A stretch of DNA of 64,000 nucleotides from Bryopsis sp. KO-2023 (Eukaryota; Chlorophyta; Ulvophyceae; Bryopsidales; Bryopsidaceae): NCBI GenBank assembly GCA_030272585.1, contig BSYQ01000004.1:2294001-2358000 (forward strand). Direction: 5' to 3'. Shown in pieces: positions 19,913 to 60,944 of the stretch. Each line of letters opens with the position of its first letter. Positions within the stretch are counted from its first letter, which is position 1. Below the pieces are notes generated by a model. That model made no database searches, was not told the DNA's origin, and was given only the letters and a program-made list of their open reading frames with translations. Made by a program: the position numbers and the translations under genes.

Positions 19913-20869
19913 TCACTGACAGATGCAGAGAGTCCCCTCTCGGTCTGAAAACGTTCTCCGTCTATTCCCTTGGACATTGAATTCGCTCTTTCTTAACCAG
20001 GGCCCATGAGCACATCCTTTTCTTTGGCATGGGCAAAGGAATCTCCTAAATCCACGATTGCAACACATCTCGTTGCCAGGCCCGCGGCAAACCTTGGTCC
20101 CTGCACCCCCTGCACAAGGATCCCCTATTTCAAAGATGTCACCCTCCCCGTCGGAGTCGGGCACATCGCTGCACACACTCGAGGCAATCAGTTCTTCATC
20201 TGGGAAGGACGAAAAACAACGGAAACATTAGCCACCTCGATTGATTGCATTCCATTTGAGACACAAACAAAGAATTTCGCAGAATATGATGCATGAAAAA
20301 GACTAAAAATGGCGCACATGCACATGCAAATTCGCCATAAAGGAACTTGCCACTGCGAGGAGGTGTGGGGATGAGTATTCAATACTGGAAAGCACTCAAC
20401 CTTACTGACCTGCGGAACAAGCTTCGGCGGTGGATCTGGCAAAGGCCACCGCAATTCTACTCTGGGCGGTAGACACAAATGCATTCTTGACGTCCTCAGT
20501 GGTCCCACGGGCACCACAAAGATCCGCACGGGCCTCCAGGACAGCCTCGGAAATTTCCTTGGAAAGAGCTCGAATATCAGCAAAGCAGAATCCCGCTACA
20601 CTAACGCCGGTGCTAGCCCCAGCTTCGGCGGAGGCGTGTGCAATCGCTTCGGCGAACGCAATAGACCAATGTTCGCCATGATGGAAATCCCATCCACAAG
20701 AGGAAGCCTGTGCCTCGCAGGTGAGCTTGCCAAATGCGTTAGCCCAGACTTTGGCAATCGCTTTTGCAACAGCTGTGGCGGCCACTTCTGCTTTACCGCT
20801 GTCACACGCACCTCCATCAGCATACCACATACCGAAAGTTCCGTACCCCGTGCACGCCGATGACAAAGC
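19913..20869 (-). CDS. Unrecognised Ala/Cys-rich protein, partial
   Basis: Two exons are visible. Exon 20869-20410 starts at a CAG acceptor and encodes 153 residues dominated by Ala with helical spacing (AKAIAKVWANAFGKL, AEAIAHASAEAGA) and scattered Cys. Exon 20199-19913 begins in matching phase, is Asp/Glu then Gly/Cys-rich (DGEGDIFEIGDPCAGGAG, CNRGF) and reaches a stop. The upstream exon with the start codon was not identified; it should lie within the left inverted-repeat arm. The gene crosses the arm border at 20830 without a break, so the left arm is in its original flanking context here. Its counterpart in the right arm is cut after 40 bases. I do not recognise the family. Confidence 0.55.
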
Positions 20870-21028
20870 CTGCGGAAGCTGGTGACAGATGTTGAATCAC
20901 CTGAGAAAAATGGAGTGCTGGGCCCCGCTTCCAACGCCAATTCGCCGCGTAGGGGGTAGTCCGGCTGGTGCTTCTTGTTGCCCATCAACCGTGAAGAACT
21001 TTCGAACTTCGAGCGTCGCGCCGCTGCA

Positions 21029-22379
21029 ATGTCGGGGACAAATGGTGTTGACCTCAGAGGGTTGGAGTTCAAAATAATCGTAAGTTTCAAAACCGAGGGC
21101 CGTTTGCGTAGCGTCCTGTTTCCTTTCACCTGTTTACTTTTCCCGTTTCGTGTGTGCAGGCTGGGTTCGCTCTCGAAAAGCGGGCGAATAATACAAATTC
21201 CTTGTGGGAAACCTGGGAAGAAGTAAGCAAAAAAGTAGGATATTCCCAATTTGATCTTTTGTCAAAAGCGTACTATCTTGCTGTCGACGGTGCGAGTATG
21301 GAACTGGATGGGGTTTTGAAAGATTTAGTGCGAGTATGGAACTGGATGGGGTTTTGAAAGATTTAACCAGACCTCCAAAAACCAACCAACCCAAAAAACA
21401 AAAACAGAAACGCTTCTGTGAGATTGGGCGGCCTGAAACGACCGGAGGAAGACAACTCAGAGGTGAAATCTGTTGCATATAGAACATAGGCAGCCTTTCC
21501 GCAAAAGAACAAACACACCGGACGGTGGTGCAAATTCCCCGCCAGGAACTAATCTCGAATTCTTAGAAAGGGGCTGGGCGTGCAAAGAGGTCAGCGGAGT
21601 GCGGAATAATTCATAGATTGGAGGCAATCCCCACAAAAGTGATGGCCAGGGTGCCTACAGGGAAGGGCAGGGAAAAAGAAGCCTCGATCGAAGCCAGGGA
21701 TCTTTCCAACTGGGCTAAGAGGTCTTTTTCTTTCCCGATTCAGGTTTTGGTCAGTTGCGGAGCTTCAGAGCAGCACCTCGTTCCAATTCTGAAACGCCGA
21801 TGCAAATTGCAGCAAGGCTTGGACATGTGGCTGTGATTGAGGTGAGTCGATGATCATGATTTTCTTTGTTTTCCTCTATTCCTCCTGACGTAGTCAACGT
21901 TCTCTAGACTTCCTCGAGTATTGCTGGGTTGGGTTGATGGCTTCAGATGAGGGGGGGGGGGGGAGGGGAAATTCGGGTGGATTAGCAAAAGAGATACCAA
22001 AAGAGAGTTGGGCAGATTATGGTTACCACTTTCCGAGGGGGTGTGTTGCTTTTCCCCATGGAGATTCATTAACAAGGGATACCTTGCATGGAACCAACAG
22101 ACTGACAACCCCCCGACTCAACTGGAGGAGAGTGCAAAAAGATCATTAGCAAAAAGAAAAAGAAGAAATGAAAGCTGGGATGCTGTGGAAGGCGAGAAAA
22201 TCGTGACTGATGAGGTTTTGACCTCTAGGCCGGATATTCTTTCCGAAGTAGAATTCACGAAGGATATCGAAATCAAGGTGGGCACCCAAAAGATGCTGCT
22301 GCCGGTGGCTGCCGTGCAAGATGTGCTGAAATCCAAAATGAGGGAAATGGTAGAAGAGGCAAGGGCAAAACATGGCTAG
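21029..22379 (+). CDS. Small protein with one ankyrin-like motif, left copy, 4 exons
   Basis: The exons are 21029-21079, 21160-21289 and 21744-21841, then a last exon starting at about 22032 and ending at TAG 22377-22379; phases of the first three match exactly. The protein begins MSGTNGVDLRGLEFKII, continues with a helical segment (NSLWETWEEVSKKVGYSQ), and exon 3 encodes half an ankyrin repeat (SETPMQIAARLGHVAVIE). The C-terminal part is charged (SAKRSLAKRKRRNESW) and ends in a predicted coiled helix (DVLKSKMREMVEEARAKHG). I do not recognise the family. The start of the last exon is the weakest part of the model. An exact copy lies on the other strand in the right arm. Confidence 0.6.
21290..21365 (+). 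repeat. Exact 38-bp tandem duplication at a splice donor
   Basis: Units 21290-21327 and 21328-21365 are identical. Each begins with the GTGCGAGT that serves as the 5' splice site of exon 21160-21289, so the donor sequence itself is duplicated. It is repeated in the right arm at 34305-34380. Confidence 0.9.
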
Positions 22380-22589
22380 TTTTGAACATGGCTAGTTGAT
22401 TCGATTACGAAGCAGTCCAATTTTTCTGCAAAAGAAAACAGTGTTAATCTTTTTTAATATAACATAGCTGAAGATTCCATATTATGCAAATGGAGAAACA
22501 GAAATGCAGAAACAAAAGACTCTCTTAATATTTTCTCAGGGTCAATGTCATATTTCAGAAAGAATATGGACCAGTGAGGTTATTTCTTA

Positions 22590-23011
22590 CTTTGTTCTTG
22601 AGCTCTCGACCTCATTCTGCGGCAATTTTTTCAATTTGAATTTTATGTCAGCGGTGTACAGAAACTGCTTTCCCATGTCATGTGGCCACCACAGATTGTA
22701 AGGTTCTTTCACAACCACCTGAAAGTTTTTGAAGACACAAGAAGAACTTTAGGCTGCCCATACCCCCAATCAAAAATAAAAATTCAAAGCAATGCAATGC
22801 AAAACAGTCTGTAAATTATCAGTACAAGTTCTTAAAAATTGCGCGAAAATTTCCCAACAGTTCTGTGTACGTTTCTGTTATTGTTGAACAAGTCTCCTGT
22901 TGACTTGAAATTCAAAGAAAGGCTCATTAAGGCAACGAGAGAAAAGCATGAAACGAACCTCATCCATTTTGACGATCAGGGAATCCTGACCCTTCAATTC
23001 TACAGTGGGCA
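22590..23011 (-). pseudogene. Two isolated beta-mannosidase exons, left arm
   Basis: Exon 23011-22959 (TVELKGQDSLIVKMDE) and exon 22718-22590 (VVVKEPYNLWWPHDMGKQ, then a beta strand LYTADIKFKL) match the end of the second beta-sandwich domain of GH2 beta-mannosidase, just before the catalytic barrel (known family layout: the LWWP..G..Q LY strand). No upstream or downstream mannosidase exons follow on this strand. The barrel exons lie on the opposite strand from about 23940. The fragment cannot make a protein as arranged. Confidence 0.7.
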
Positions 23012-23742
23012 CTGATGGTAGTGGACACAACATCATCGAATCCCTTCGCCATAAAATGAACGAAACCTATCCGGCGCTCACCCCGTTAACTGGGCAGCAT
23101 CCAGGGGGCGAGCCACTGCCCGGGGTTTCCCTGTATGATGTCTCTGTGGAAACACGGGTCAGCAAAGGCAAAGGGGGTGTTCGGCAGTCGGATCGATCAG
23201 GGTTTCTTTTCACTCACAAGGGCTACAGTGGACCCGGCTTCTTGGATTTGTCACACTATGCCGTAATGGGGATGGAACGAAATGGTGTGAAGCCGAAGTT
23301 GACGGTGAATTGGATAGGCAAAGATGTGGCATTCTGGGAGGGTGCTCTGAAAAGCACGACGAAAGGCTTGGTTCCAAATCTGTTGCACCGCCAGGGCATT
23401 CCACAGCGACTGTGTGATGCTCTGTGTAGGGCTGCGAATGTCCCACTTGATCGGAGATTGTCTCAAATCAGAAAACTTGAAATGAAATCCTTGCTGGAGG
23501 TGCTGACTCGGTATGAGTTGCCCTCCGAGGGTCATCAAAGGTACAAGAAAGCGGAAGTCACTGGGGGCGGGGTGCCTTTATCTGAGTTAGACTGTTCAAC
23601 GATGGAATCCAGAGGTTTGCCTGGGGTGTATTTGTGTGGCGAGATTGTGGATGTGTTAAGGAGGATAGGTGGGTTCAACTTTTATTGGGCATGGTTGTCA
23701 GGGCGACTCGCAGGATCGAGTTGCCGGAAATCACTGCTCTGA
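23006..23742 (+). pseudogene. C-terminal half of a HI0933/BaiN-like flavoprotein, left copy
   Basis: One exon of about 245 codons ends at TGA. It matches the C-terminal half of the HI0933-like (YhiN/BaiN) FAD-dependent oxidoreductase family: GTDGSGHNIIESL, YPALTPL, GFLFTHKGYSGPGFLDLSHY, the segment KKAEVTGGGVPLSEL followed by TMESRGLPGVYLCGEIVDV, and GFNFYWAWLSGRLAG. The N-terminal Rossmann half with the dinucleotide-binding GGGAAG-type motif is absent upstream; instead the sequence runs straight into an antisense mannosidase exon, overlapping it by six bases. The gene is therefore 5' truncated at a rearrangement junction near 23005. The family is common in bacteria and plastid-bearing eukaryotes. 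Confidence 0.85.
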
Positions 23743-31927: not shown

Positions 31928-32664
31928 TCAGAGCAGTGATTTCCGGCAACTCGATCCTGCGAGTCGCCCTGACAACCATGCCCAATAAAAGTTGAACCCA
32001 CCTATCCTCCTTAACACATCCACAATCTCGCCACACAAATACACCCCAGGCAAACCTCTGGATTCCATCGTTGAACAGTCTAACTCAGATAAAGGCACCC
32101 CGCCCCCAGTGACTTCCGCTTTCTTGTACCTTTGATGACCCTCGGAGGGCAACTCATACCGAGTCAGCACCTCCAGCAAGGATTTCATTTCAAGTTTTCT
32201 GATTTGAGACAATCTCCGATCAAGTGGGACATTCGCAGCCCTACACAGAGCATCACACAGTCGCTGTGGAATGCCCTGGCGGTGCAACAGATTTGGAACC
32301 AAGCCTTTCGTCGTGCTTTTCAGAGCACCCTCCCAGAATGCCACATCTTTGCCTATCCAATTCACCGTCAACTTCGGCTTCACACCATTTCGTTCCATCC
32401 CCATTACGGCATAGTGTGACAAATCCAAGAAGCCGGGTCCACTGTAGCCCTTGTGAGTGAAAAGAAACCCTGATCGATCCGACTGCCGAACACCCCCTTT
32501 GCCTTTGCTGACCCGTGTTTCCACAGAGACATCATACAGGGAAACCCCGGGCAGTGGCTCGCCCCCTGGATGCTGCCCAGTTAACGGGGTGAGCGCCGGA
32601 TAGGTTTCGTTCATTTTATGGCGAAGGGATTCGATGATGTTGTGTCCACTACCATCAGTGCCCA
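31928..32664 (-). pseudogene. C-terminal half of a HI0933/BaiN-like flavoprotein, right copy
   Basis: Identical at protein level to 23006-23742 (245 codons). It lacks the N-terminal FAD-binding half, as does the left copy, so the truncation predates the duplication. It lies 87 bases from the arm's inner border, beyond which the SWR1-like fragment starts. Confidence 0.85.
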
Positions 32665-33080
32665 CTGTAGAATTGAAGGGTCAGGATTCCCTGATCGTCA
32701 AAATGGATGAGGTTCGTTTCATGCTTTTCTCTCGTTGCCTTAATGAGCCTTTCTTTGAATTTCAAGTCAACAGGAGACTTGTTCAACAATAACAGAAACG
32801 TACACAGAACTGTTGGGAAATTTTCGCGCAATTTTTAAGAACTTGTACTGATAATTTACAGACTGTTTTGCATTGCATTGCTTTGAATTTTTATTTTTGA
32901 TTGGGGGTATGGGCAGCCTAAAGTTCTTCTTGTGTCTTCAAAAACTTTCAGGTGGTTGTGAAAGAACCTTACAATCTGTGGTGGCCACATGACATGGGAA
33001 AGCAGTTTCTGTACACCGCTGACATAAAATTCAAATTGAAAAAATTGCCGCAGAATGAGGTCGAGAGCTCAAGAACAAAG
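32659..33080 (+). pseudogene. Two isolated beta-mannosidase exons, right arm
   Basis: Copies of the left-arm exons: 32659-32711 (TVELKGQDSLIVKMDE) and 32952-33080 (NLWWPHDMGKQ). Donor and acceptor sites are intact (GAG before GTTCG, TTTCAG before GTGGTT). Downstream on this strand there is no barrel exon up to the arm end, so the fragment is orphaned. Confidence 0.7.
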
Positions 33081-33290
33081 TAAGAAATAACCTCACTGGT
33101 CCATATTCTTTCTGAAATATGACATTGACCCTGAGAAAATATTAAGAGAGTCTTTTGTTTCTGCATTTCTGTTTCTCCATTTGCATAATATGGAATCTTC
33201 AGCTATGTTATATTAAAAAAGATTAACACTGTTTTCTTTTGCAGAAAAATTGGACTGCTTCGTAATCGAATCAACTAGCCATGTTCAAAA

Positions 33291-34641
33291 CTAGCCATGT
33301 TTTGCCCTTGCCTCTTCTACCATTTCCCTCATTTTGGATTTCAGCACATCTTGCACGGCAGCCACCGGCAGCAGCATCTTTTGGGTGCCCACCTTGATTT
33401 CGATATCCTTCGTGAATTCTACTTCGGAAAGAATATCCGGCCTAGAGGTCAAAACCTCATCAGTCACGATTTTCTCGCCTTCCACAGCATCCCAGCTTTC
33501 ATTTCTTCTTTTTCTTTTTGCTAATGATCTCTTTGCACTCTCCTCCAGTTGAGTCGGGGGGTTGTCAGTCTGTTGGTTCCATGCAAGGTATCCCTTGTTA
33601 ATGAATCTCCATGGGGAAAAGCAACACACCCCCTCGGAAAGTGGTAACCATAATCTGCCCAACTCTCTTTTGGTATCTCTTTTGCTAATCCACCCGAATT
33701 TCCCCTCCCCCCCCCCCCCTCATCTGAAGCCATCAACCCAACCCAGCAATACTCGAGGAAGTCTAGAGAACGTTGACTACGTCAGGAGGAATAGAGGAAA
33801 ACAAAGAAAATCATGATCATCGACTCACCTCAATCACAGCCACATGTCCAAGCCTTGCTGCAATTTGCATCGGCGTTTCAGAATTGGAACGAGGTGCTGC
33901 TCTGAAGCTCCGCAACTGACCAAAACCTGAATCGGGAAAGAAAAAGACCTCTTAGCCCAGTTGGAAAGATCCCTGGCTTCGATCGAGGCTTCTTTTTCCC
34001 TGCCCTTCCCTGTAGGCACCCTGGCCATCACTTTTGTGGGGATTGCCTCCAATCTATGAATTATTCCGCACTCCGCTGACCTCTTTGCACGCCCAGCCCC
34101 TTTCTAAGAATTCGAGATTAGTTCCTGGCGGGGAATTTGCACCACCGTCCGGTGTGTTTGTTCTTTTGCGGAAAGGCTGCCTATGTTCTATATGCAACAG
34201 ATTTCACCTCTGAGTTGTCTTCCTCCGGTCGTTTCAGGCCGCCCAATCTCACAGAAGCGTTTCTGTTTTTGTTTTTTGGGTTGGTTGGTTTTTGGAGGTC
34301 TGGTTAAATCTTTCAAAACCCCATCCAGTTCCATACTCGCACTAAATCTTTCAAAACCCCATCCAGTTCCATACTCGCACCGTCGACAGCAAGATAGTAC
34401 GCTTTTGACAAAAGATCAAATTGGGAATATCCTACTTTTTTGCTTACTTCTTCCCAGGTTTCCCACAAGGAATTTGTATTATTCGCCCGCTTTTCGAGAG
34501 CGAACCCAGCCTGCACACACGAAACGGGAAAAGTAAACAGGTGAAAGGAAACAGGACGCTACGCAAACGGCCCTCGGTTTTGAAACTTACGATTATTTTG
34601 AACTCCAACCCTCTGAGGTCAACACCATTTGTCCCCGACAT
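33291..34641 (-). CDS. Small protein with one ankyrin-like motif, right copy
   Basis: Mirror copy of the left-arm gene; exons map to 34641-34591, 34510-34381, 33926-33829 and about 33638-33291, ending at TAG. Every frame I compared is identical except the single base noted for the arms. If both arms are real, the genome has two identical copies of this gene facing away from each other's flanks. Confidence 0.6.
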
Positions 34642-34800
34642 TGCAGCGGCGCGACGCTCGAAGTTCGAAAGTTCTTCACGGTTGATGGGCAACAAGAAGC
34701 ACCAGCCGGACTACCCCCTACGCGGCGAATTGGCGTTGGAAGCGGGGCCCAGCACTCCATTTTTCTCAGGTGATTCAACATCTGTCACCAGCTTCCGCAG

Positions 34801-34840
34801 GCTTTGTCATCGGCGTGCACGGGGTACGGAACTTTCGGTA
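34801..34840 (+). pseudogene. Exon fragment of the Ala/Cys-rich gene, cut at the arm border
   Basis: It encodes ALSSACTGYGTFG as in the left copy, then changes at 34841 to unrelated GC-rich sequence. This is direct evidence that the right arm's outer edge is a breakpoint. Confidence 0.85.
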
Positions 34841-35904
34841 CGGATCCGCGCCGGGACCAGGGTCCGATCCGGGCGGGGGGAGCGTACGGCAGCATGCATA
34901 GTACGGCGCATCCCCCCCCCCTCCTTGTTTCGCCAACGCTCACGCGGCGGAACCACCCCAACGCACGACCCCCCCTTTCGGACCCCCCCTTGCCCTTGGC
35001 GCTACCCCCGCGCGCGCCGCCGACGCCCCGTGCCTCACCTCATGGCTTCCGCCGCTGATCTGCCTGGTCGAAGACACTCTCTGCACGCTTCGCCTCTTTT
35101 CGAAAAGAACAAGGCGCCGACGAAATAGGATTGACGGACGACGGCCTGTCTCGTCACCCGAACAAGGTGGCAGTCTAAGGTAACGAGGTAACACGAAAAA
35201 AGAGTGGCGGAGAGAGGTGGGCGAGCACCAGCCCAAAAAAACAAAAAAAATAAATTCTATACATAGAAAGCTCTTCTGGTTGCAACATCCAGCCCCCCAT
35301 GTATTGTGAATTCCTTTTTTTGATGTTTTTTTTTTCTTTTGGCCATGATTCTAGACTGTTCAAAGGAACTTGAAAAAAAAAAGAAATGATTTTAGTTTTG
35401 GGTGGAGGGCTTCATCCCTCCCTGAACTCCTGGCTCTGGCAGTTTGGGGCCTCTTTCGAAAAAATGCAACCTTGTGAAATGAATTTCGTTCGATGACTAT
35501 AAGATCACGCTGCCTTCAGGTGGACCCAGTGCCCTTGTCCTGAGCATTGAGACAAGTGCCAACATGGTACTTCCAAGAGGATTTTATGAGAGGGTGAAGG
35601 GTCCCATTGGAGGCTCTCGAGACTCAGAGTGGATACCTGGTGGGATCAACTGGAGGTTGTGGTAGGCTTCCAGGACTTTCAATCAATAAATCAATCAGGA
35701 ATGTAGTCACATCTCTTATTAGCAGAAGGCCATCGCCTGAGCAGTTGGTGTAAGATGAGGGTGGTGTTGGTGTGAAGCATCGCAACGATAAGAAGTGAAA
35801 AGAGCTACTTACGATTACTTTCGATTACTTCTGATGGGTGTTAGGACAACAAACAAAAGGGTGGCTTGATTTTTCTAGTTTCTTCTTCTTTCTTTCTTTT
35901 AAAG
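34841..35904. other. GC-rich breakpoint flank, then low-information sequence
   Basis: 34841-35060 is much richer in G and C than the rest of the window (runs such as CCCGCGCGCGCCGCCG) and starts exactly at the inverted-repeat border. A stretch at about 35517-35664 (+) has a plausible open frame (GPSALVLSIETSANMVLPRG) but no recognised family; it could be an upstream exon of the VPS54-like gene. Confidence 0.5.
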
Positions 35905-48674: not shown

Positions 48675-49175
48675 TTACATTTGTCGACCAAGCACAAAGG
48701 ATGCACGCTGGCAAGAATTTACACAGGTAAGCCACTGGGTACCAACCTTGCAATCAGCGCTCAGAGTTCCACCACAAGTGCCAGTGATATCTAGAATATC
48801 AAGAATGGCGAATGCTTTGCAGCTGGTGTCCACAGCTTGAAGGCAGATGATTCCGGCCTTGATTTCTCGATCCAGAACTTGGCTCTCTGTGCGAGAAGCT
48901 ACTTCAGGGAAAAAGTTAGAGCTCTGGACCGTGGGGACCCCTTTTTTGGATGAGATTTCCTCTATCCCCGTAGAACTAGGGAGAAGTCCTGCTGTAAAAT
49001 TTGCAACGACCGTCTCCTGTCGACTGGTACTGGGGGTCTGTTTGATTCCTCCGCAGACGTCAATATTAATATCGGTTGTTGCCGAAGACTCGGCGTCGCG
49101 ATAGCATTCGTTCGCCAGTCCCTGGTGCAGCACCAACAGGAGGGCAACAATCGAGAAGCTGGACTTCATGTCCAA
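48675..49175 (-). CDS. Small predicted secreted protein, unknown
   Basis: A single uninterrupted frame of 166 codons with an ATG, ending at TAA. The N terminus has a clear signal peptide (MDMKSSFSIVALLLVLHQ, then GLA before NECYRD). The mature part is Ser/Thr-rich with about seven cysteines (CYRDAE, DVCGGI, IICLQ, TSCKAF, GTCGG, ADCKVG), so it may form disulphides outside the cell. The last 20 residues cross a potential splice site, so the true C terminus may differ. I do not recognise the family. It lies upstream of, and divergent to, the secreted protease-ankyrin gene. Confidence 0.5.
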   Translation of the reverse strand: MDMKSSFSIVALLLVLHQGLANECYRDAESSATTDINIDVCGGIKQTPSTSRQETVVANFTAGLLPSSTGIEEISSKKGVPTVQSSNFFPEVASRTESQVLDREIKAGIICLQAVDTSCKAFAILDILDITGTCGGTLSADCKVGTQWLTCVNSCQRASFVLGRQM

Positions 49176-50078
49176 AAATAATTCCTCGTGCGTCGTGGAT
49201 TTGGCACAAGATTTTTCAGTTTTGAATGCTTGGCTTCGTCTCGCAAGGGTCTCTTCGAGAAGTATTGCGACCTGCTCTTTGTCGCTGTGGCAGCTTAAGG
49301 GGGTTTCTGTGGCAGGTTCTTTTTTTCGTAGGAAGCTAGTGCAAGTGAAATTTTATGGGCTGGGTTTTGGATGACCTGGAGGCCATCCCACCTGGGAAGC
49401 GATCTCGTTCACACTACTTAAGTTTGTTGAAGTTTTGGGCATCAATAACACATGTGCATGTAGGTATATGCGTTCTGTAAACTCACATCCACAAAAACTC
49501 GTTTGAAGCCTTCACAGAGTATTTGGTCTCTGAGTAGAGGCATACCTCCATAGCACAGGATGTTTTTTATTTTTTTCAATGCAAATTCTTGGGATCTGCG
49601 TATACGAACTCGAACATGGAAGATAAGAAGAAAAAAAAAACGTGTTTTTTTGGCTTGAGTGCCATGACTGAGATGCCTTTGGGCGGCTGCCAAAAACTCT
49701 GAAGATGATTCCAGTTGGTGTGGAATTTGGGATTTTGAGTTCTGAGCTTGTTTTGGGCCAAACGAGGTGCCCATTACAGGGTCGGACGAGGACGATGCAA
49801 TAGAAACAAACGATACATTTCGATGCGACGAAGTTTGGTGGCGAAATCACGTCAGGGAGCAGCCGCGTCCGTTGCGCAAGGAAAAGAGTGAAAAGCACTG
49901 GAGACACGCGAGTGGAAAACTAGTGTCGTTCCAGATCTAGCAGTATACCTAGTAGGATAAGCCTGCGAGTTACACTTGCCAAGTAGCGTGAGCAGTGTTG
50001 GCGGACGTTCCAGATCCAGAGTGGAACTTTTGTGTATACGTGACCTCCACCCACAAGCGCAGCATTTATCTGCCTCCA
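49176..50078. promoter_or_regulatory. Divergent upstream region of two secreted-protein genes
   Basis: It lies between the start codons of the small secreted protein (-) and the protease-ankyrin gene (+). No coding feature or defined regulatory site could be supported. Confidence 0.4.
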
Positions 50079-53000
50079 ATGCAACTGCAAACCGTCTTGA
50101 TACTGTCGGCGATCTGCTGCGTTTTGTCACAAAGAGTTTTTTCTGCGCTTCCGTCAGGTGGGTCCTTTCAACGTCCTCCCCGTTGGCACCTTCTCCCTCC
50201 GTGTGGGACTCACTTCGCTTTGACTTCCAGGGATCGCGCGCGGCGGCTATCGACAGGTGGATGTTTATCTCTCACTGCTTTATACAGTCCCCTTGTCCAG
50301 TTTCCAGCTTGAAGAATGACTTCGTTCCGTGAAGCAGGGTAACCTGTCCGTCGGCCGGCTCCTTCAAGATGCGGCACCGTTCATTAGAGTGAGTAAACAT
50401 GCAACGGCCCATGGGCGCAACAACATTCGACCATTTTCATTCACGTAGTTTGTGCGAACGTTGGTTGAAGTTTCGGGGAGCCTGACCGATTTGCTACATC
50501 CTTTCTGCATCAAAAAATTGTGGCCGCAGTTGCTATATAGTCATACCTCGTACAAACACTCACCTACATGACAGTACTCTCACACTTTTCTGTCTTGCCT
50601 CATCATCAAGAAACCTGATCAAATCTCCAAGCAGTATTGCTGCACTTCATCTTCCCTGTTCTGGATGGATTGCTACTCTCATACATGAAATGATTCCTGA
50701 TTCCTGAAATGTATGGTGTACAGAAGATACAAAAAAAAAATTAAAAATCAAACAGCACTTGTACATCATGCATTTCATTTCATGTGTAGAAAAAAGTGTT
50801 GAATATGAATGTGTCCTTCCACAAAAACACAGTGTTCAATTTTTCGTTGCCCCAATTGGGGACCTTGCAAGATGCAGCACTCTCCATCGATGTTGTGGTG
50901 CGGGCCAAAATTGGCATCGCTCTAAAAAACAAAGCTGCCCTTTTCTGGCCCCTCCAATTCCTCCCTGGTTTTCAGAGTTGGACTACTGCTACCCAAAAAA
51001 TTCAGATGAAGAATAAAACTGGGGACATAGAAACACAGCTTTTTTTTTCTTTTTTTTTTAATCTTCATGATGGTTGTGTCGAGTACAAACATTAAACTCC
51101 ATTATGCATTATGGTGTCTGCAGGGGGGGCAAGACGCCCCGGAAGGGCGGTTTCCTTATGCTTGCTCTCTGAGGGCAGCGGGTGTTCGAATTCATCAATG
51201 TGGAGGCACCTTGATCGCCCCTGAATGGGTTTTGACCGCGGCCCATTGTTTGATTGGAGAAGATACGTTGGGGCCGACGCCCATCGTGTATGTGGGTGCT
51301 CTTGGAATCGATGATGAATCGTCTGCGGAGGTAACTCAAAGATCTCTTGTACCCCTTCAAGGGCTGCAGAATTGTTCTGGCAAAAAAAGCCAACTGAGTA
51401 ACCCATGGCCAGTGTGCATCTGTTCACGCATATATTTTTTATCAACCCCAAAAAACATTTTTTTTTATTTTTTATATATATATATATTTATATTTTATTT
51501 TAGAAGCAGAAGTACCTTGTATGCTCGACGCTGTGCAGATCATACTGGCAGAGGGTGCCATTATCCATGAGAGATACACAGGCAATGTTCTGGATGGATT
51601 TGATATAGCTCTGATTAGGCTGAAGACACCCTCCACCAAATTGCCAGCAGCGCTGGCGCAAACTGATCAGCAGCTCGGGGCAAGTCAGCTGTTAGCAACC
51701 ATTGGATGGGGAAGGACTAGTCTACGTGGCCCGCTGCCCCAAGTCCTTCAATTGGCAGACCAAATAGAGTATGTCAGCAACCAGAACTGCCTGCGCAGCT
51801 GGCCCGGCCTTAAAGACAGCATGCTCTGTGCATTCTCCACCTCACAATCAACATGCAAGGGTAAGGGAGTCAGATTTCTGGTTCCAGCCAAACAAACAGT
51901 GTTGCTTTTGCACCAAGTCGTTTGCAACCAGCCATGTTAGACAGACGATAGTCTATTGGAGGCTTGCAAGCATGTCTGGGACTTAATGTTTGATTTGCAT
52001 GTTTTACCCACAATGGGCCGATCTTGTTTGTACAGGTGACTCTGGAGGTCCTCTGATGATTGCTGATAGCAGAGGGGGGGACAGCACCACTGCAGGGAGC
52101 CCGGAGCTTGACGTGACTGTTGGCATTGTATCTTTTGGCCCAGAGGGATGTGATTCCACGAAGACTGATGTTTTTACCAGAATGAGCAGTTTCCGGCAAT
52201 GGGTCGATGAAACGATGGCGAGGGGGCTTTCACAACCACCCAGGACTACAGCTCCTCAAGCAGCAACTCCAGCCACACCCCAACCCGAGGTGAAGCAAGG
52301 TTAAAGTCAGCCCGCCTCTTTCTGTTCAGAAGCAAGGAAGTCTCTGTGGTCAACGTGTAAACTATCTGCTTGAAATCTTGAAACACACCCCTGCTGACCT
52401 GTGTCCAAGCGTATGGCAGACTCAATTTTAATCATCGGGTTGAGAGCACCCCCTTCCCCCCTCCTCAGCTTATCGATTGAGACTGAAAACAGACCCCAGA
52501 TGTTCAGCCATAGCGACCTACTCAAGTCTAAAAATTTTCCAAGATTCCCTACCCCCCCCCCCAAAAAAAATCTCGTCCCCAGGGAAAATTTTCAGGGTGC
52601 AGAAAAATGAATTCCTACCATATGGGGGTCTTGAAACCTTGTTCATCTAATAATACGTGCAGTGCCTAAGTTTTGAAAAAACGATTCACAACGACTTCCT
52701 GAATTTTTGCTTTTGATGCCTTTTAATTTTCCAGCAGGTTTCTGAAGCTGTTCCAGACCCTCCCAAGAATCCTCCATCCGTGCCAACCCAGGGGCGATGT
52801 GAAAAAGATTGCGATAATCTGAACTTAGACCTCTTCAATGCTGCTAGTTCTGGGCAAAACAGCAAGGTCAAGGTAAAAAAAACGCTCTCCAAGCCTATGA
52901 TTTTTTTCCCTTTTTCTTTTCCTTTCTTTTGTCTGGGCATGTGAAGAAAAATGCAACAGATCAGCATACTGTTTGGTTTGCAGGATTTGATTTCGAAGGG

Positions 53001-55521
53001 GGCTGATGTGTCGTCCACCCATGGAGAGGCCGATTCTACTCCATTACATGCTGCTGTCAAGGAAGAGCATGATGTTGTTGTCGAATTGTTGATCGAAGCA
53101 GGTGAATGGCAGCACTATTTATAATTTTTTATTTGAATCCTATCCGTCTGCATGTACATGGGGCAACATAGGATTTTCAGGATTTTTCAGGATTTTTCAG
53201 GATTTTTTCAGGATTTTAGGATTTTTTCTTTAGGATTTTAGGATTTTTATTCAAATGAAAACATAAGCGACCCCATACCAAAAGTTGCACAGGTTTTTTC
53301 CACGCTGAATTGTCCTGAAAAAAAAAGGAAAATGATTGATTGATTGTCGATTGATGCTCCAGATTTTTTTTTCTTCTCTAAATTGTTGCAGGGGCCAATG
53401 TGGATGCACAGGACGCCAGCGGAGGAACTCCACTGTATTATGCTGCAAGAATAGGCTATTTGGATGCTGCCAAAGCTTTGGTCAAAGCAGGTGAGAAGTT
53501 CAATAATTTTTCCACGCTGCTCCAAATGTATATTGCAACAACAGCACAATATTCATCCCCAAACTGCAACAACGCTGATCGACAGGACGATCATTTTTTT
53601 TTTCTACTTGCAGGGGCAAACGTGGATTTGGAAAAAGAGACTGGAACCACCCCTTTGATGGCTGCATCGATTTTTGACGAAGTGGAATTCCTGGAATTTC
53701 TGCTGGAATCAGGTGCTGTTGAGATTTCTGGCCACCCACTGAGACTGCCAAATTTTCATGCCTGGGTATTATAATAATGGAAACCTTGAGACAAAAAAAA
53801 TTGTGGTTTGTGGAGCGTGGGTGACAATTTGTCTGTTGATTCGAAATAATAAAAATAGTAATATGCCGTGGATGCAATATGCTTGACTTTTCTCATCATG
53901 TGTTTCAGGTGCCAACCCGGATGCTCAAACTGTTCAGGGAAAGACGGCGTTATTTTTTGCTGGTGAAAATGGGCACTTGGAGATTGCCATGGCTCTAGTC
54001 AAAGCAGGTATATTTTGACGCTGGGCATGCAAGTGCACGTGTGTTTTTTTTGTTTAAAAAAAAATAAAAAAAATCATGGTTGCTTGGCATCAGGTAAAAG
54101 CAGGAGCTTACGTTGATTTTGTTCCCTTGTTGAACATCTCTTTTTTTGCCGGGATCGAGTGGGTTTTTTTCTAATTCATTTTTTTTGAGACATTATAGTT
54201 TTTTTTTATGTCAATTTTTTTTCCCTTTTTTTCTTTCAGATGCAGAATCAACGAAACGAACAAAAAGGAGGGAACTTTTTCTTTGAAAAATGCTTTTTTT
54301 CTTTTTTTGAACCGACAAAAAAAAAAACAAAAAACATGCTATGAATTAGAAAAAAAAAGAAGCATGCTTCATATCCTTGAATAAAAAGTCTGAAAAAAAA
54401 TCTTCGAGCTTCACATTTTTTTTAATTATCAATAGCTTTTTGCCTCCTCTGTTTCTTCATTTTTTCTTTCCCCTTTTTGACGCAGCAAGACAACCTGCAA
54501 AAATAGAAGCAAAAAAAAAAAGCAAAATATATATTGTAAAATTTCTTGACAGAGAGGTACCACATGTTTTTCTTTTCGTTTCGATTGGTCGATTTTTTTT
54601 CTTAATTTTCCTCTTGTCGGTGGCAATTTATACTCAGTCCTGAATCAAGCAAGCAGCAAGAAGTGACTGATGGAATAAAATATGGTTGGCTTTTCCTTCG
54701 GTTCACCTTGTTTGTTTCAGGGGCAAATTTGAATTTGAGAACAAACAATAAGACGAGTCCGCTGACTATCACATCGAACAAAGGCTTTCTGGAGACGGCA
54801 GCGTTTCTACTGGAATCAGGTGCACATGACCTTTTTCACCCCCATCATCGAATTTTACGCAGTTTTTTTTTAGTTTCCAAAGTGCTAGGCACTTTCACAA
54901 GCGATTTCTACTGGGTTGACTTCATCTTAGATGCAACTGTGGAGAACTGAGTGTTTTATTGAGGTGGATTTTTCTTAAGGGCAGGGTTAAATCACCTTGT
55001 TGTGGATGGCCTTCAATGCACAAGTGTGCCTAATGTAAATTAAAAATTCATTCAGGATGTCGATCTCAAATCCAGTTCCGCTGCAGTGCTAGCAAGCATC
55101 CGCATGTCTGTCACAAGTCAATTTCGCTTCGTTTAACGAAACCAAAACTCTATTTCCTCCAGGTGCAAAAGTGAATATCGAGAACCACAGGAATATGATC
55201 CCATTGATGGCTGCTGCCGGGTCAGGAAACGCAGAACTGGTTCAATTGCTCTTGGACAAAGGAGCTGCAGCTGAGTTGAATGCCCAGGACAGGGAAGGAA
55301 GAACCGCATTGTTTTATGGAGCTTTCGCTGGAAGTGGCGATGCTGTCGAAGTGCTGATCAAAGCTGGGGCTGACACCAGCATCGAGAACGAGGATGGGAA
55401 GAAGCCTGTGGATATTGTTTGTGGTTGCAAGACGCCGGTGCCTGGGCGGGATCCCTCCTGTGGGGAAGACAAATGTGGAACAGGAGAGCAAGAACGTATC
55501 GAAGCAATTCTGAAAAGTTGA
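50079..55521 (+). CDS. Secreted trypsin-like serine protease fused to ankyrin repeats
   Basis: Exon 50079-50157 encodes a signal peptide (MQLQTVLILSAICCVLSQ). Protease exons 51124-51330, 51539-51860 and 52036-52289 join in phase and give an S1 domain with GGQDAPEGRFPY, TAAHC (His), FDIALIRL (Asp), TIGWG and GDSGGPL (Ser). The last protease exon ends in a Pro/Ala/Thr linker (TTAPQAATPATPQPE) and joins in phase 0 to exon 52738-52872, which continues it (AVPDPPKNPPSVPTQG) and then reads RCEKDCDNLNLDLFNAASSG. Ankyrin exons follow: 52984-53101, 53392-53490, 53614-53712, 53909-54007, 54721-54819 and 55163-55521, about eight repeats, ending with a Cys-rich cap (DIVCGCK, CGEDKCG) and TGA. The exon linking signal peptide and protease (50158-51123) is unresolved. 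The Pro-rich linker shared across the junction is the best evidence for one transcript. Confidence 0.75.
52468..52548 (+). repeat. Dispersed intronic repeat family R2, copy 2
   Basis: It matches 11111-11191 at about 80% over 80 bases. It lies in the intron (52290-52737) joining the protease to the ankyrin part. Confidence 0.75.
53166..53240 (+). repeat. GGATTTT(TCA) tandem repeat
   Basis: About eight imperfect units of AGGATTTTTC inside an ankyrin-gene intron. Confidence 0.85.
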
Positions 55522-56931: not shown

Positions 56932-58390
56932 ATGCTCTCCTTGTTGATCGTGTTGACACTGTGCTACTGCTCCGAGGCGACGCTTTCGTATGCTGCACCG
57001 ATAGGTGGGTTGATCCACAGTGGGGTCTTCCACTGTAACGCAGCTGTACGTCTGCGTAGTTCTGGGGAACGTCGTTCGAGCTTTGGGGCGAATGGGTGGT
57101 GTTGTGTTGCGAAGTTCAAGTCGGGGGTGCTGTTCCACAAAATTCTGAAATCGCTTTGGTTCCGCAGGCGTGGCGGCTGGCGGCGATCCTCGGCAGGTGT
57201 GATAATACCCCTTCAAATATTTGAATTGATGGAGTCGCACATCATTCCCAGTTGATGAGCTGATGTCTTGTTGGTTACACAAACTACAGGGCGACGCGGA
57301 AACGGCGCGTGCTGGGGGCTGGACAAGGGTCGATCGTTCGACTCGGAAGCTGCTGCAGGTGCTACCACAGATAGAAGATGATGATCTTCTTGAGGGAAGC
57401 AAGCTTGATGTGGTTATATTTGCACTGGGCTTGTCCAGAGAGTTCAATTGGTTGTAGGGTTGTAGGAGATCAAAAGCCAATTCTTCTTTTGAGCAAAAGA
57501 TACTTCATGGCACCCCCCGAAAAAAGAAAAGAAAAAAATACCCAGTTGACTGACAGCCTCTGATGTATCTTCATGCATGCATGGATGTATTGTTTTGACA
57601 GCGGGAACATGTTCAGATTTTGAAAGGTTGATTCTCTGCGCCCTGTGTTCCATCGTTAGGATGCAACAGTCATGTGGCAGCAAGGGCTGAAAAGCACAAA
57701 TCAAGGATCAGTTAAATGCTTTTTTGCAGAGGTCCATGCTTTCATTGCTGCACAGCCCTGTTTTTGACAACGGATTTGCTTTGTACTTATTATTTCTCAG
57801 TCCTGTTTTTTTTTTTCCTTTTTTTTTCCAGGCAGAATGTCGGAACTGCAACAGATTGAATGAAGCACTTTTCAATGCGACTCTTGAGGGTGACTCCGAG
57901 AAAATTGAGGTATTCCTGTGATCAACTGCAGACTTGTCCTGGAAATTTAAAAATAAAATGTCTTTTCTAAAACAAAAACATCTGTGTCAATTATTTTTGC
58001 AGGAGCTTCTCTCAAAGGGTGCTGATGTGAACCAAACAGCATCGAAGAACGGGGAAAGCCTGCTTCATATTGCTCCTTTTGTGGATAAAAATGCTTCAGA
58101 CATTGTTGAAATTCTTATCGCAGCAGGTGAGCACTCCAATCTTCAAGTACTCAATATCAACGCCTGCAGACCTCCTCCATCGCACCCCCTTTGTTTTTAG
58201 TTCACAATCAAACAAAAATGGCTGCTCAAATTGTTCAAATTGGGGCGATACAGTACGATCAGTACACTGCAGGATATCATGTGTTGGCTATCGCACGCTG
58301 TGACTTCCCACATGTGGAAACATACAAGTTTCCAGCATTGTTTTTTGTTCATTGAAAATATGGAGAATCTGCAAATAAGAACAGTATTTT
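56455..58390 (+). repeat. Tandem segmental duplication, first copy
   Basis: It is homologous to 62077-64000 over upstream region, signal exon, introns and the first two ankyrin-gene exons. The offset is 5,592 bases at the signal exon and 5,612 at the later exons. The end of homology on the right is beyond the window. Confidence 0.85.
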
Positions 58391-60944
58391 TTTCAACAAT
58401 TGGATGAGAACTTGTTGCAGGGGCAAGTATTGATGCACAGGATGAAAATGGCGAAACTCCGTTGCATCTTGCTGCACAATATGGCCACTTGGATGTTGCC
58501 AAGCTTTTGATCGATGCAGGTAGTGCCAAAAAAAAAGAATTTCAGTAAAAACAATTCATTCCAGGTCAGAATGTTTTTCTTTTTATTATTTGCAGCAATA
58601 ATTTTTGTTGTTTTTTGTCTGTTTGTTTGTTTGTTTGTTTGTTCTATTGCCCATCCATTGATGCACTCCTGTTTCCACCGCAAACTAAGTCTGTCCAGCT
58701 TTTGATCGTTGCTCTTTCAGGGGCAACTGTAGATTTCAAAGACGAGGAGGAATACACCCCATTGATTGAAGCGGCAAGATCTGGAAGATTGGAGTTGGTT
58801 GAGTATCTCCTAGAATCAGGTACTTTCTGGAGGGGTTTTTGACCACCTTTCTAGATTTATGCAGATCATAGTTTTTGTTGAACTACCTATGGGCACCTAA
58901 TGGTCCACCATCCACACACACCCCTGTTGGAAAAAGAGGCTAGGCTGATTTTTGGAATGTGATCGACCGTGATCGACGGTGAAGTGGAGGCGGTGGAGTT
59001 TCTCTTGGAATCAGGTGTTCTTGGGGATTTTATTGCCACCTGCACATGCAAGCACCGGAAAAAAAAAAAAAAACGTCTTACCAAAAAGAGTCAGATGTTG
59101 CAATTGAGATGCTGTAAAGCACATATATGTGTTGTAACCCTTCCCCATTAATTGCTGTAGGGGCAGATATTGAAGCACAAAATGAATGGGGCCAGACTGC
59201 TTTGTATCTCGCTGCAAAAAATGGTCATTTGGATGTTGTTCAGATTTTGGTCAAATCAGGTGATCTTTGATTGAGATGCTACAAATTCTCTTTAGATTGT
59301 GCCCTTGCTTATGCAGCACACATTTACATGTCTTCACCCATAATAAGGTACCAGGTTGAATTGAGATTCATAACCCTCCCCTGGAGTCCTGCAGTAGTGA
59401 TATCCTTTTCAAGCCTCGCTTTTTTTCTTCCAGGTGCAAGTGTGGATTCGAAAGATGATGATGGACGCACTCCTTTGATGGAGGCTGCAGGAGAAGCCAA
59501 TGCAGGGGTGGTGAAGTATCTCCTGGAATCAGGTGCTCCTCGCAAGGTTTTTCAGCACCTGCTGTATAGTGGAAACCAGGGAAGCAGTGAGCATTTCAAA
59601 TTTCAACAGAAATAGGGAGGGAGGGAGGGAGGGAGGGGGGGGGGGGACCAATTTCTGCATGCAGGCCCATCGAGGCACCAGAACTGCACAATGCCTCATG
59701 CAGTGCCAGAGTTTGGGACTGTTTGTTTCCAGATGTTAACAACCTCTAGAGTCTTGAAACCTAGAAAAATCAAGTTCCATGTGTTTTGATGCATCCCTTG
59801 AGCGTGATGCAGGTGCAAGTATCCATGTGCGGAGCGATTTAAAACGCACTTCGTTGCAATTTGCTGCACAATATGGTCACTCGGACGTTGCCAAGGTTTT
59901 GATCAAAGCAGGTGATGGGAATTTTTCTCTGTTCGAACCTTGGTGTTTCACAGAATATTTTTTAAATCTATCGTCGCATTCAGTAGCAACTTATATTTTT
60001 GTTTGCCCTCTACTTTTTGCAGGGGCGCAAATTGACGTACAGGATGATTGGGGTCGAACTCCATTGCATTATGCTGCAACTAGGGGCTTTTTGGACTTTG
60101 TCAAACTTCTGATCAAAACAGGTGATGTGAATTTTTTTTTCTGATTCAGGTGTTCTGGCAGAAATGATTTCATATCTGTCATTACATTGCACACTCATCA
60201 GTGTCTTAATATGGTTTGGCCTTTTTTTGTCAGGGGCAAATATGGATTTAAAATCAGAGGCAGGAGAAACCCCTTTGATAGAAGCATTGATAGAAGCAGC
60301 AGGAGAGGGTGAAGTGGAGTTGGTGGAGTATTTCTTGGAATCAGGTGTTCTTGACAGGCCTTCTTCTGCTGAAATGTGCAACCTAACCAACTCCCAGTTT
60401 CACTGCAGTAATAGTAACCATGACACATGGATGACTCATTAAACAATATCCAGATAAAAGATTGTGGCGAACGACAGGTGCCATTTCTTTCCTCCTTTGG
60501 AATCGCTGCAGTGTTTAAAAAAGTGATACGCACAAGTCATGTTCAATACAGTCGAGAACCACATGTTTGTATGTTTTTTGGGGGGGGGGTTGTTTTGCAG
60601 GTGCAGACATCAATGCTCAAGATGATGGTGGCGAAACAGCATTGATGAAGTCTATTGACAGAGAGCAAGTTAACCAAACACTGGTTGCACTCTTTTTGGA
60701 CAACGGAGCTGAAGTGAACGTTCAAAATGATGATGGAGACACTGCACTGCATTTTGCAGCCGAAGAAGGCCATGGTGAATCAATCGAACTTCTTATCAAG
60801 GCGGGGGCTGATGTTGACATTCAAAATGATAATGAGGACAAACCTGTGGACGTAATTTGTGAATGCAAGCTGCAGGGGTGGTGCGGAGAAGAAGCATGTG
60901 GCGAAGAAGAGATAAAACGTCTCGAAGGCATTCTGAAAGGTTAA
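56932..60944 (+). CDS. Predicted secreted ankyrin-repeat protein, Cys-capped
   Basis: Exon 56932-57004 encodes a signal peptide ([19 protein letters not shown]) ending in phase 1, like that of the upstream protease gene. Exon 57832-57909 ([20 protein letters not shown]) matches the protease gene's RCEKDCDNLNLDLFNAASSG cap. Ankyrin exons: 58003-58126, 58421-58519, 58721-58819, 59161-59259, 59435-59533, 59813-59911, 60023-60121, 60234-60344 (12 nt longer) and 60601-60944, about eleven repeats ending in DVICECK and CGEEACG, then TAA. The 99-nt exons start in phase 1 after AG and end in phase 1 before GT. Between signal and Cys exon lies a conserved frame at about 57290-57400 with [14 protein letters not shown], possibly a cystatin-like exon, whose splicing is unresolved. 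No protease domain was found. Confidence 0.8.
58965..59015 (+). pseudogene. Relic of an ankyrin exon inside an intron
   Basis: It reads [14 protein letters not shown] followed by GTGTTC, the end of a LLESG-type repeat plus its donor. The first half and the acceptor are lost. It lies in intron 58820-59160. Confidence 0.65.

What the first reader, a model, noticed from the sequence alone, without database searches (positions are those of the whole stretch)
50079..55521. Secreted trypsin-like protease fused to a run of ankyrin repeats
An S1 protease with intact His/Asp/Ser motifs is followed, across one intron in matching phase, by a Pro-rich linker, a Cys motif and about eight ankyrin repeats with a Cys-rich cap. 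Ankyrin repeats are usually intracellular; here a signal peptide and cysteines point outside the cell. I know of no described S1-ankyrin family of this layout.
Basis: partly seen in the sequence, partly recalled or inferred. Interest (0 to 1): 0.78.

Follow-up and report, generated by a model that had tools for sequence, protein, structure and literature searches.

The report
Secreted protease-ankyrin fusion gene family
An alga-like genome carries a large family of genes that join a secreted chymotrypsin-type protease to a run of ankyrin repeats, a combination I did not find described and which may aim the enzyme at chosen targets outside the cell.

Summary
Window 50079-55521 fits a 13-exon gene with every splice phase matching (648 aa): signal peptide, pro-region, whole S1 domain (Pfam Trypsin 2.2e-41), Pro/Thr linker, Cys N-cap, 8-9 ankyrin repeats, four-Cys C-cap. 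It is a family: of 67 family D-exons found genome-wide, 52 have an ankyrin match within 5 kb downstream on the same strand (opposite strand 2; random placement mean 9.7, max 17). The five neighbouring siblings read repeat the layout.

Corrections: position 189 is never Asp in the 8 genes read, so the pocket looks chymotrypsin/crab-collagenase-like, not trypsin-like; the activation site has Phe at P1 in the 5 genes where it was read. New: inner repeats are 99-nt phase-1 exons of two alternating types; neighbouring secreted ankyrin-only genes keep signal and pro exons but lack the protease exons, a phase 0-0 cassette. Replacements gather at ankyrin binding-face positions, but this rests mostly on the ankyrin-only genes.

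Best reading: extracellular proteases aimed by their ankyrin arm. No transcript evidence. Probably a green-lineage alga, species unknown. Capped paper searches found no S1-ankyrin family.

The parts
50079..50157 (+). exon 1: start codon and signal peptide (MQLQTVLILSAICCVLSQRVFSALPS)
   Evidence: hydrophobic core and small-residue cleavage motif judged by eye; phase 1 end
50231..50256 (+). exon 2: pro-region
   Evidence: starts phase 1, ends phase 0; similar exon in the neighbouring ankyrin-only gene
50338..50388 (+). exon 3: pro-region ending LLQDAAPF-IR, predicted activation cleavage after Phe
   Evidence: LLQDAEAF followed by I or V in g2194, g2213, g2243, g2249
51124..51330 (+). exon 4: S1 domain with catalytic His (TAAHC)
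51539..51860 (+). exon 5: S1 domain with catalytic Asp (GFDIAL)
52036..52289 (+). exon 6: S1 domain with catalytic Ser (GDSGGP) and Pro/Thr-rich linker
   Evidence: phase 0 donor GAG|GTGAAG
52290..52737 (+). intron joining protease and ankyrin parts; if retained, stop codon at 52302-52304
52738..52872 (+). exon 7: Pro-rich linker and Cys N-cap (C-x3-C-D)
52984..53101 (+). exon 8: first full ankyrin repeat
53392..53490 (+). exon 9: ankyrin repeat type A, 99 nt, phase 1-1
53614..53712 (+). exon 10: ankyrin repeat type B, 99 nt, phase 1-1
53909..54007 (+). exon 11: ankyrin repeat type A, 99 nt, phase 1-1
54721..54819 (+). exon 12: ankyrin repeat type B, 99 nt, phase 1-1
55163..55521 (+). exon 13: last ankyrin repeats and four-Cys C-cap (C-x-C-x10-C-x4-C here), stop codon
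56932..57004 (+). neighbouring secreted ankyrin-only gene, exon 1 (signal peptide [21 protein letters not shown])
   Evidence: splice sites placed by eye
57168..57196 (+). ankyrin-only gene, exon 2 (pro-region counterpart)
   Evidence: by eye
57290..57358 (+). ankyrin-only gene, exon 3 (pro-region counterpart ending STRKLLQ)
   Evidence: by eye
57832..57909 (+). ankyrin-only gene, N-cap exon ([18 protein letters not shown]); no protease exon was matched between it and exon 3
58003..60938 (+). ankyrin-only gene, repeat exons to the end of the C-cap match (stop codon not placed)

Best explanation
The locus encodes one member of a large family of secreted zymogens. After signal-peptide removal the pro-region (LLQDA..F) would be cut after Phe, freeing the Ile/Val N-terminus that activates the S1 domain, perhaps by a chymotrypsin-like family member or by itself. 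The pocket (Ser, Gly, Ala or Thr at 189, usually Asp at 226) suggests broad or hydrophobic P1 preference. A Pro/Thr linker ties the enzyme to a Cys-capped ankyrin solenoid that binds a target and so brings the protease to it. The solenoid can grow and shrink in whole 99-nt exons, so the family could form a set of differently aimed proteases; protease-less sisters keep the secreted binding arm alone, and in these the binding face changes fastest. Shown by sequence: architecture, exon phases, intact triad, pocket residues, Cys caps, paralogue numbers, exon modularity, protease-less paralogues. Inferred: secretion, activation route, disulfide pairing, target binding by the repeats, and the biological role.
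For: Gene model with all phases matching and Pfam domains. Five siblings with the same exon order. 52 of 67 D-exons with an ankyrin match downstream on the same strand within 5 kb; opposite strand 2 of 67; random placement mean 9.7, max 17 in 500. Phe before the new N-terminus in the 5 of 6 genes where the pro-exon was read. Position 189 never Asp in 8 of 8, position 226 Asp in 7 of 8 (placed by the alignments to 1eq9 and 1azz). C-cap Cys pattern in 6 of 6 genes, N-cap Cys pair in 5 of 6; Cys is 3 of 2409 residues in 73 repeat exons. Pair g2194/g2213: protease omega 0.18, N-cap plus repeat exons 0.80, last exon 1.5; 12/20 against 28/9 replacement/silent, Fisher p 0.0017. 21 exon pairs: omega 0.97 at seven binding-face positions against 0.46 elsewhere, equal dS, permutation p 0.0002.
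Against: No transcript or protein data. Signal peptide judged by eye. 16 of the 21 exon pairs behind the binding-face result come from the ankyrin-only region (50 of 136 replacements at the seven positions, p 0.0004); the 5 pairs from protease genes give 4 of 8, p 0.07, with dN well below dS in both classes. Binding-face positions are loosely constrained in ankyrin repeats in general and omega does not exceed 1, so relaxed constraint explains the pattern as well as selection does. The positions are recalled from DARPin design. 15 of 67 D-exons had no ankyrin match in the lists pooled. Some of the 52 pairings could involve a neighbouring ankyrin-only gene. g2187 lacks the N-cap Cys pair; the mature window protein has an odd number of Cys (13). 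In g2194 the frame of exon 6 stays open through the intron into exon 7, with a Met in the intron.
Confidence: 0.53

Rival explanations
1. Two neighbouring genes: a secreted protease that ends near 52302 and a separate ankyrin gene, copied together as a pair.
For: Reading through intron 6 gives a stop 4 codons after the donor, and a TGTAA lies 51 nt after that stop in this gene. In g2194 a Met lies in the open frame upstream of exon 7.
Against: Exons 7 and 8 of the window gene hold no Met and the phases can be matched in the six genes read, in g2243 and g2249 with donors placed by eye. The sequence beyond the donor differs between paralogues, with stops after 2, 4, 27, 31, 38 and 76 codons, and none of the five siblings has TGTAA within 400 nt after that stop. 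The ankyrin-only sister supplies its own signal and pro exons.
Confidence: 0.06
2. The ankyrin part is an internal regulator: it covers the active site or makes the enzyme dimerise, and does not choose targets.
For: Zymogen-type proteases are often held by attached domains (established knowledge). An extra Cys at mature residue 16, kept in 6 of 6 genes, could bridge domains or subunits. In the protease genes the inner repeats change little in sequence.
Against: Repeat number differs between near-identical sisters: g2213 has one more A-B exon pair than g2194. Protease-less sisters persist.
Confidence: 0.2
3. A digestive or housekeeping protease expanded by tandem copying, with an ankyrin tail under weak constraint and no specific ligand.
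For: In the one close pair, protease exons are under purifying selection while the ankyrin side is near neutral; some matched exons carry stops.
Against: Framework positions of the repeats are still constrained (omega 0.46), C-cap Cys are kept in 6 of 6 genes, and ankyrin-only copies exist without the protease.
Confidence: 0.16
4. The proteins act in an internal compartment of the secretory path (vacuole, food vacuole or ER), not outside the cell.
For: A signal peptide alone does not tell the final place; no retention or vacuolar signal was tested.
Against: None found: Cys caps and Cys-poor repeats fit any oxidising compartment, so they do not separate the two.
Confidence: 0.3

Closest known systems
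Chymotrypsin family S1A; best-scoring solved chains include fire-ant chymotrypsin (1eq9, first), an enteropeptidase (3w94, second) and crab collagenase (1azz, third)
   Same: Sequence match over the whole S1 domain; triad; Cys at three of the usual disulfide pairs (recalled); 1eq9 and 1azz align Gly at 189 and Asp at 226 where this gene has Ser and Asp
   Different: Here a Phe activation site and a long ankyrin arm are added; the second-best chain, enteropeptidase, does not share the 226 residue in the alignment
Ankyrin-repeat solenoids (animal ankyrins, DARPins)
   Same: Repeat sequence and helix pattern
   Different: Secretion signal, Cys-rich caps, attachment to a protease, inner repeats as 99-nt exons of two alternating types
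Alpha-latrotoxin and relatives (secreted ankyrin proteins)
   Same: Ankyrin repeats in a protein that works outside the cell; four such chains are among the 60 solved sequences shown
   Different: The match covers repeats only; no S1 domain there to my knowledge. Their toxin domains were not looked for here
Tandem ankyrin family of Bathycoccus prasinos (149 copies; PMC3491373, passages read)
   Same: Green alga, strong lineage-specific tandem expansion, repeats in the C-terminal part
   Different: The paper reports no hit for the N-terminal part, and the word trypsin does not occur in it; its sequences could not be compared here
Bacterial conflict systems with trypsin-like effectors (PMC8195603, passages read)
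   Same: Trypsin-like peptidase effectors, and repeats such as ankyrins proposed to sense invaders
   Different: In the passages read the two are not described in one secreted chain of this layout

Membership tests
S1A serine protease (chymotrypsin fold) | Catalytic His, Asp, Ser in their motifs | tested here: met
   Window gene and five siblings and L026, L027: 8 of 8 read. L027 belongs to a D-exon for which no ankyrin match was pooled
S1A serine protease (chymotrypsin fold) | Whole-domain profile match above Pfam's cut-off | tested here: met
   PF00089 142.6 bits, cut-off 20.6, profile 1-220 of 220
S1A serine protease (chymotrypsin fold) | Pro-peptide followed by Ile/Val-x-Gly-Gly type N-terminus | tested here: met
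   Window gene IRGG, g2243 VTGG, g2249 VSGG; g2213 reads IAGS and g2194 IAKS, so the Gly-Gly is in 3 of 5; g2187 not read
Trypsin (specificity) | Asp at position 189 | tested here: not met
   Ser here; S, A, G, G, S, T, A, G over 8 genes, placed by the alignments; numbering recalled
Crab-collagenase-like pocket | Non-Asp 189 with Asp 226 | tested here: met
   7 of 8 genes; g2243 has Gly 226. Function of the pocket not tested
Ankyrin-repeat protein | Tandem ~33-residue repeats above Pfam's cut-off | tested here: met
   PF12796 196.8 bits, PF00023 156.4 bits; helix pairs in the model of exon 13, mean pLDDT 78.6
Latrotoxin family | Latrotoxin-specific N-terminal toxin domains | not tested
   The Pfam scan of the whole protein lists only S1 and ankyrin models at E 0.001; no latrotoxin model was compared by name
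Bathycoccus ankyrin family HOM000035 | Sequence relationship of repeats and N-terminal part | not testable with these tools
   Those sequences are not in the collections offered

The most novel reading that the evidence does not exclude
A single-celled alga-like eukaryote keeps a repertoire of about fifty secreted, differently aimed proteases plus free binding arms, diversified by gain and loss of whole ankyrin exons and by change at the binding face: an extracellular recognition system built on ankyrin repeats, playing the part that leucine-rich repeats or immunoglobulins play elsewhere, for defence, prey capture or self-recognition.
Probability: 0.23. Interest if true: 0.87.

Novelty: new variant of a known kind. 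Interest (0 to 1): 0.64.

Why it matters
Ankyrin repeats are treated as intracellular binders, apart from cases such as latrotoxins. A family of some fifty secreted protease-ankyrin genes would be a natural counterpart of engineered binder-enzyme fusions, with exon-by-exon length change and, at least in the protease-less sisters, a binding face that changes faster than the framework. It opens direct tests: what do the arms bind, and does the arm set what the protease cuts?

Tried and rejected
Separate-gene reading: judged unlikely. Trypsin specificity: rejected on pocket residues. Viral relatives: in viral contigs 22 stretches matched the patterns from alignment A1 and 164 those from A2, none confirmed as a relative. 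Bacterial and archaeal genomes: 23 stretches matched, 1 confirmed, an S1 frame in a Hyphomicrobiaceae MAG (L051) that ends shortly after the S1 part. Poly(A) signals: TGTAA and AATAAA gave no usable signal; only 2 of 17 control trypsin loci yielded a gene end under my pattern, so that control failed. One search scanned 19 loci (L012-L030) on the stored strand only; L026 and L027 alone gave the family's motifs, the rest were not read for them. Organism: light-harvesting (107 matches), RuBisCO small subunit (10) and SBP-box (6) families point to the green lineage; an earlier guess of a chlorarachniophyte was dropped after the SBP result, though not excluded. The 18S search did not complete. Paper searches: nine, of which 53 was on latrotoxins and 58 on DARPins; for several only the head of a long list was seen (15 of 989, 15 of 5,469, 12 of 1,006). 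None of the titles seen describes an S1-ankyrin family. A note says that Asp 226 was in all siblings; g2243 has Gly. Notes also give the C-cap as ending C-x3-C; it is C-x4-C. One search used coordinates off by one and was redone. One search was an empty script. One search was a filing that did not fit the form.
Full report
The window lies at C4:2294001-2358000 of a 91.1-Mb genome in 28 contigs. The finding's gene starts at 50079 and stops at 55521. A model of 13 exons, all with GT donors and AG acceptors, gives 648 residues with no phase clash. Pfam finds a complete Trypsin domain at 51-285 (2.2e-41) and ankyrin models over the rest (Ank_2 7.2e-59). The layout is signal peptide (by eye), pro-region, S1 domain, Pro/Thr linker, Cys N-cap, eight to nine ankyrin repeats, Cys C-cap.

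The question that matters most is whether the two halves are one gene. Within this gene the joining intron is phase 0 on both sides and exons 7 and 8 hold no Met. I read five sibling genes in the 258 kb around it (C4:2180001-2438000). They show the exon order His, Asp, Ser, linker with N-cap, ankyrin, C-cap. A script found phase-0 GTRA donors before the read-through stop in four of the six genes (window gene, g2187, g2194, g2213); for g2243 (GTACGA, with an extra linker exon) and g2249 (GTGGGG) I placed the donor by eye, and the N-cap exon of g2187 and g2243 was also found by eye. Beyond the exon-6 donor the paralogues have different sequence, with stops after 4, 38, 76, 27, 2 and 31 codons, as an intron would. 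Against this, in g2194 the read-through frame stays open into exon 7 and holds a Met in the intron.

Genome-wide, a search with one sibling's Asp exon, in which all 138 candidates were scored, gave 96 matches, 67 of them at E at or below 1e-17 (65 on C4, one each on C3 and C6). Of these 67, 52 have a same-strand ankyrin or cap match within 5 kb downstream with no other family Asp exon between; on the opposite strand 2 of 67; same-strand upstream 18 of 67, which I put down to tandem neighbours. Ankyrin matches placed at random in C4 1.29-2.61 Mb gave a mean of 9.7 and a maximum of 17 in 500 trials; matches on other contigs and the few beyond 2.62 Mb were left in place, and seven Asp exons on C4 lie outside the interval. 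The ankyrin list pooled 96 places picked by hand, whose lists are capped, so 15 unpaired exons are not shown to lack ankyrin, and a single pairing does not by itself prove a fusion.

The protease looks active but not trypsin-like. The triad is intact in 8 of 8 genes read: six in the region, plus L026 and L027. L027 is one of the 15 without a pooled ankyrin match. Set against 1eq9 and 1azz, position 189 is S, A, G, G, S, T, A, G and never Asp; position 226 is Asp in 7 of 8 and Gly in g2243. The names of these positions and their link to specificity are recalled. The pro-exon reads LLQDAAPF before IRGG here and LLQDAEAF before I or V in g2194, g2213, g2243 and g2249; that of g2187 was not identified. 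The Gly-Gly after it is kept in 3 of these 5; g2213 reads Gly-Ser and g2194 Lys-Ser. Activation would therefore need a cut after Phe, which suits an enzyme with this pocket; that it activates itself is a guess.

Extracellular placement is supported but not proven. The C-cap pattern C-x-C...C-x4-C is in 6 of 6 genes and an N-cap Cys pair, of varying spacing, in 5 of 6. Between the caps of the window protein there is no Cys in 277 residues, and in 73 repeat exons Cys is 3 of 2409 residues, two of them in one degenerate exon. I had no cytosolic ankyrin set from this genome to compare. An AlphaFold model of exon 13, made from two window sequences, gives the expected helix pairs with mean pLDDT 78.6; most of the Cys-cap loop is below 50, so no disulfide pairing can be read from it.

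The repeats are modular. Inner repeats are mostly exons of exactly 99 nt, phase 1 at both ends, and alternate between a type ending in LVKA-like and a type ending in LLES-like sequence; 73 such exons were found in the 258 kb, 24 in protease-ankyrin genes and 49 in the ankyrin-only region. g2213 has one more A-B pair than its sister g2194. Between these two, protease exons show 12 replacements to 20 silent changes (omega 0.18), the N-cap and repeat exons 18 to 7 (0.80) and the last exon 10 to 2 (1.5); 12/20 against 28/9 gives Fisher p 0.0017. This is a single pair of genes.

Over 21 non-overlapping pairs of 99-nt exons at least 75% identical, the seven positions randomised in DARPins (numbers recalled) carry 54 of 144 replacements, omega 0.97 against 0.46 elsewhere with dS 0.171 and 0.166; the permutation p is 0.0002. 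Split by gene type, 16 pairs from the ankyrin-only region give 50 of 136 (p 0.0004) and 5 pairs from protease genes give 4 of 8 (p 0.07), with dN 0.047 and 0.014 against dS 0.121 and 0.148. So the fast-changing binding face is shown for the ankyrin-only sisters and only hinted at for the protease genes. It does not show positive selection, since these sites are free in most ankyrin proteins. A review passage places the randomised positions of DARPins on the concave surface (PMC8229355, passage read).

Next to this gene are secreted ankyrin-only genes. The one from 56932 has a signal-peptide exon, two pro-region exons and an N-cap exon in the same phases, then repeats and the C-cap up to 60938, but no matched protease exon. 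Relatives at about 2356, 2363, 2412, 2416 and 2434 kb look alike. The one at 2416 kb keeps RKLLLDVDAFLV, a likely relic of the zymogen site, which suggests that the protease was lost there and not gained. The three protease exons are flanked by phase-0 introns, so their loss, or their skipping, keeps the frame. Of 57 cap matches in the genome, 33 have a family Asp exon within 6 kb upstream and 24 do not.

The genome has many light-harvesting exons (107 matches), RuBisCO small subunit (10 matches) and SBP-box matches (6), which suggests the green lineage; the species is unknown and the 18S search did not complete.

In print, nine searches were made, two of them on side questions; I saw listings, several of them only the head of long lists, and passages of six papers. 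None of what I saw describes an S1-ankyrin family. The closest precedent is Bathycoccus prasinos, with 149 tandem ankyrin genes whose N-terminal part had no database hit and for which a role in binding scales was suggested (PMC3491373, passages read); a later study did not find ankyrin enrichment in the families shared only by scaled taxa (PMC4815162, passages read). Many genome papers are not in the library, so absence in print is not established.

Verdict: a real, repeated and, as far as I could find, undescribed domain combination. The parts are known; the secreted fusion, its modular repeat exons and its protease-less sisters are the news.

Noticed in passing
window 20596-23742 and 31928-35128: Inverted duplication: the same open frames, including a 250-aa HI0933-like flavoprotein frame, occur on opposite strands.
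   Followed up: partly
window 48675-49352, minus strand: A short frame with a signal-peptide-like stretch (MKSSFSIVALLLVLHQGLA) and several Cys, divergent from the protease-ankyrin gene; no Pfam match at E 0.01.
   Followed up: partly
G000 C4:2230240-2231749 (L036): Reverse-transcriptase-like retroelement fragments, part of them repeated, inside the gene cluster; judged by eye from the translation.
   Followed up: no
G000 C14:1.11-1.39 Mb: A second cluster of PF00089 exon matches that the family Asp-exon search does not list, so perhaps another S1 expansion.
   Followed up: no
G000 C4: about 752, 863-876, 1649, 1675 and 1754 kb: Family Asp exons followed about 0.7-1.4 kb on by ankyrin in one long open frame, as if these members lost the repeat introns.
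   Followed up: no
L014, C-terminal end of the S1 part: Another S1 protease with a PAPVPAPVPAP tail, so repetitive Pro linkers may recur in this genome's proteases.
   Followed up: no
window gene, mature residue 16 (exon 4, YACSLR): An extra Cys kept in 6 of 6 genes that has no partner among the usual S1 disulfides as I recall them.
   Followed up: no
window 57832-57909 and relatives: An N-A-T glycosylation sequon in the N-cap exon of the ankyrin-only genes, N-A-A at that place in the window's protease gene.
   Followed up: no
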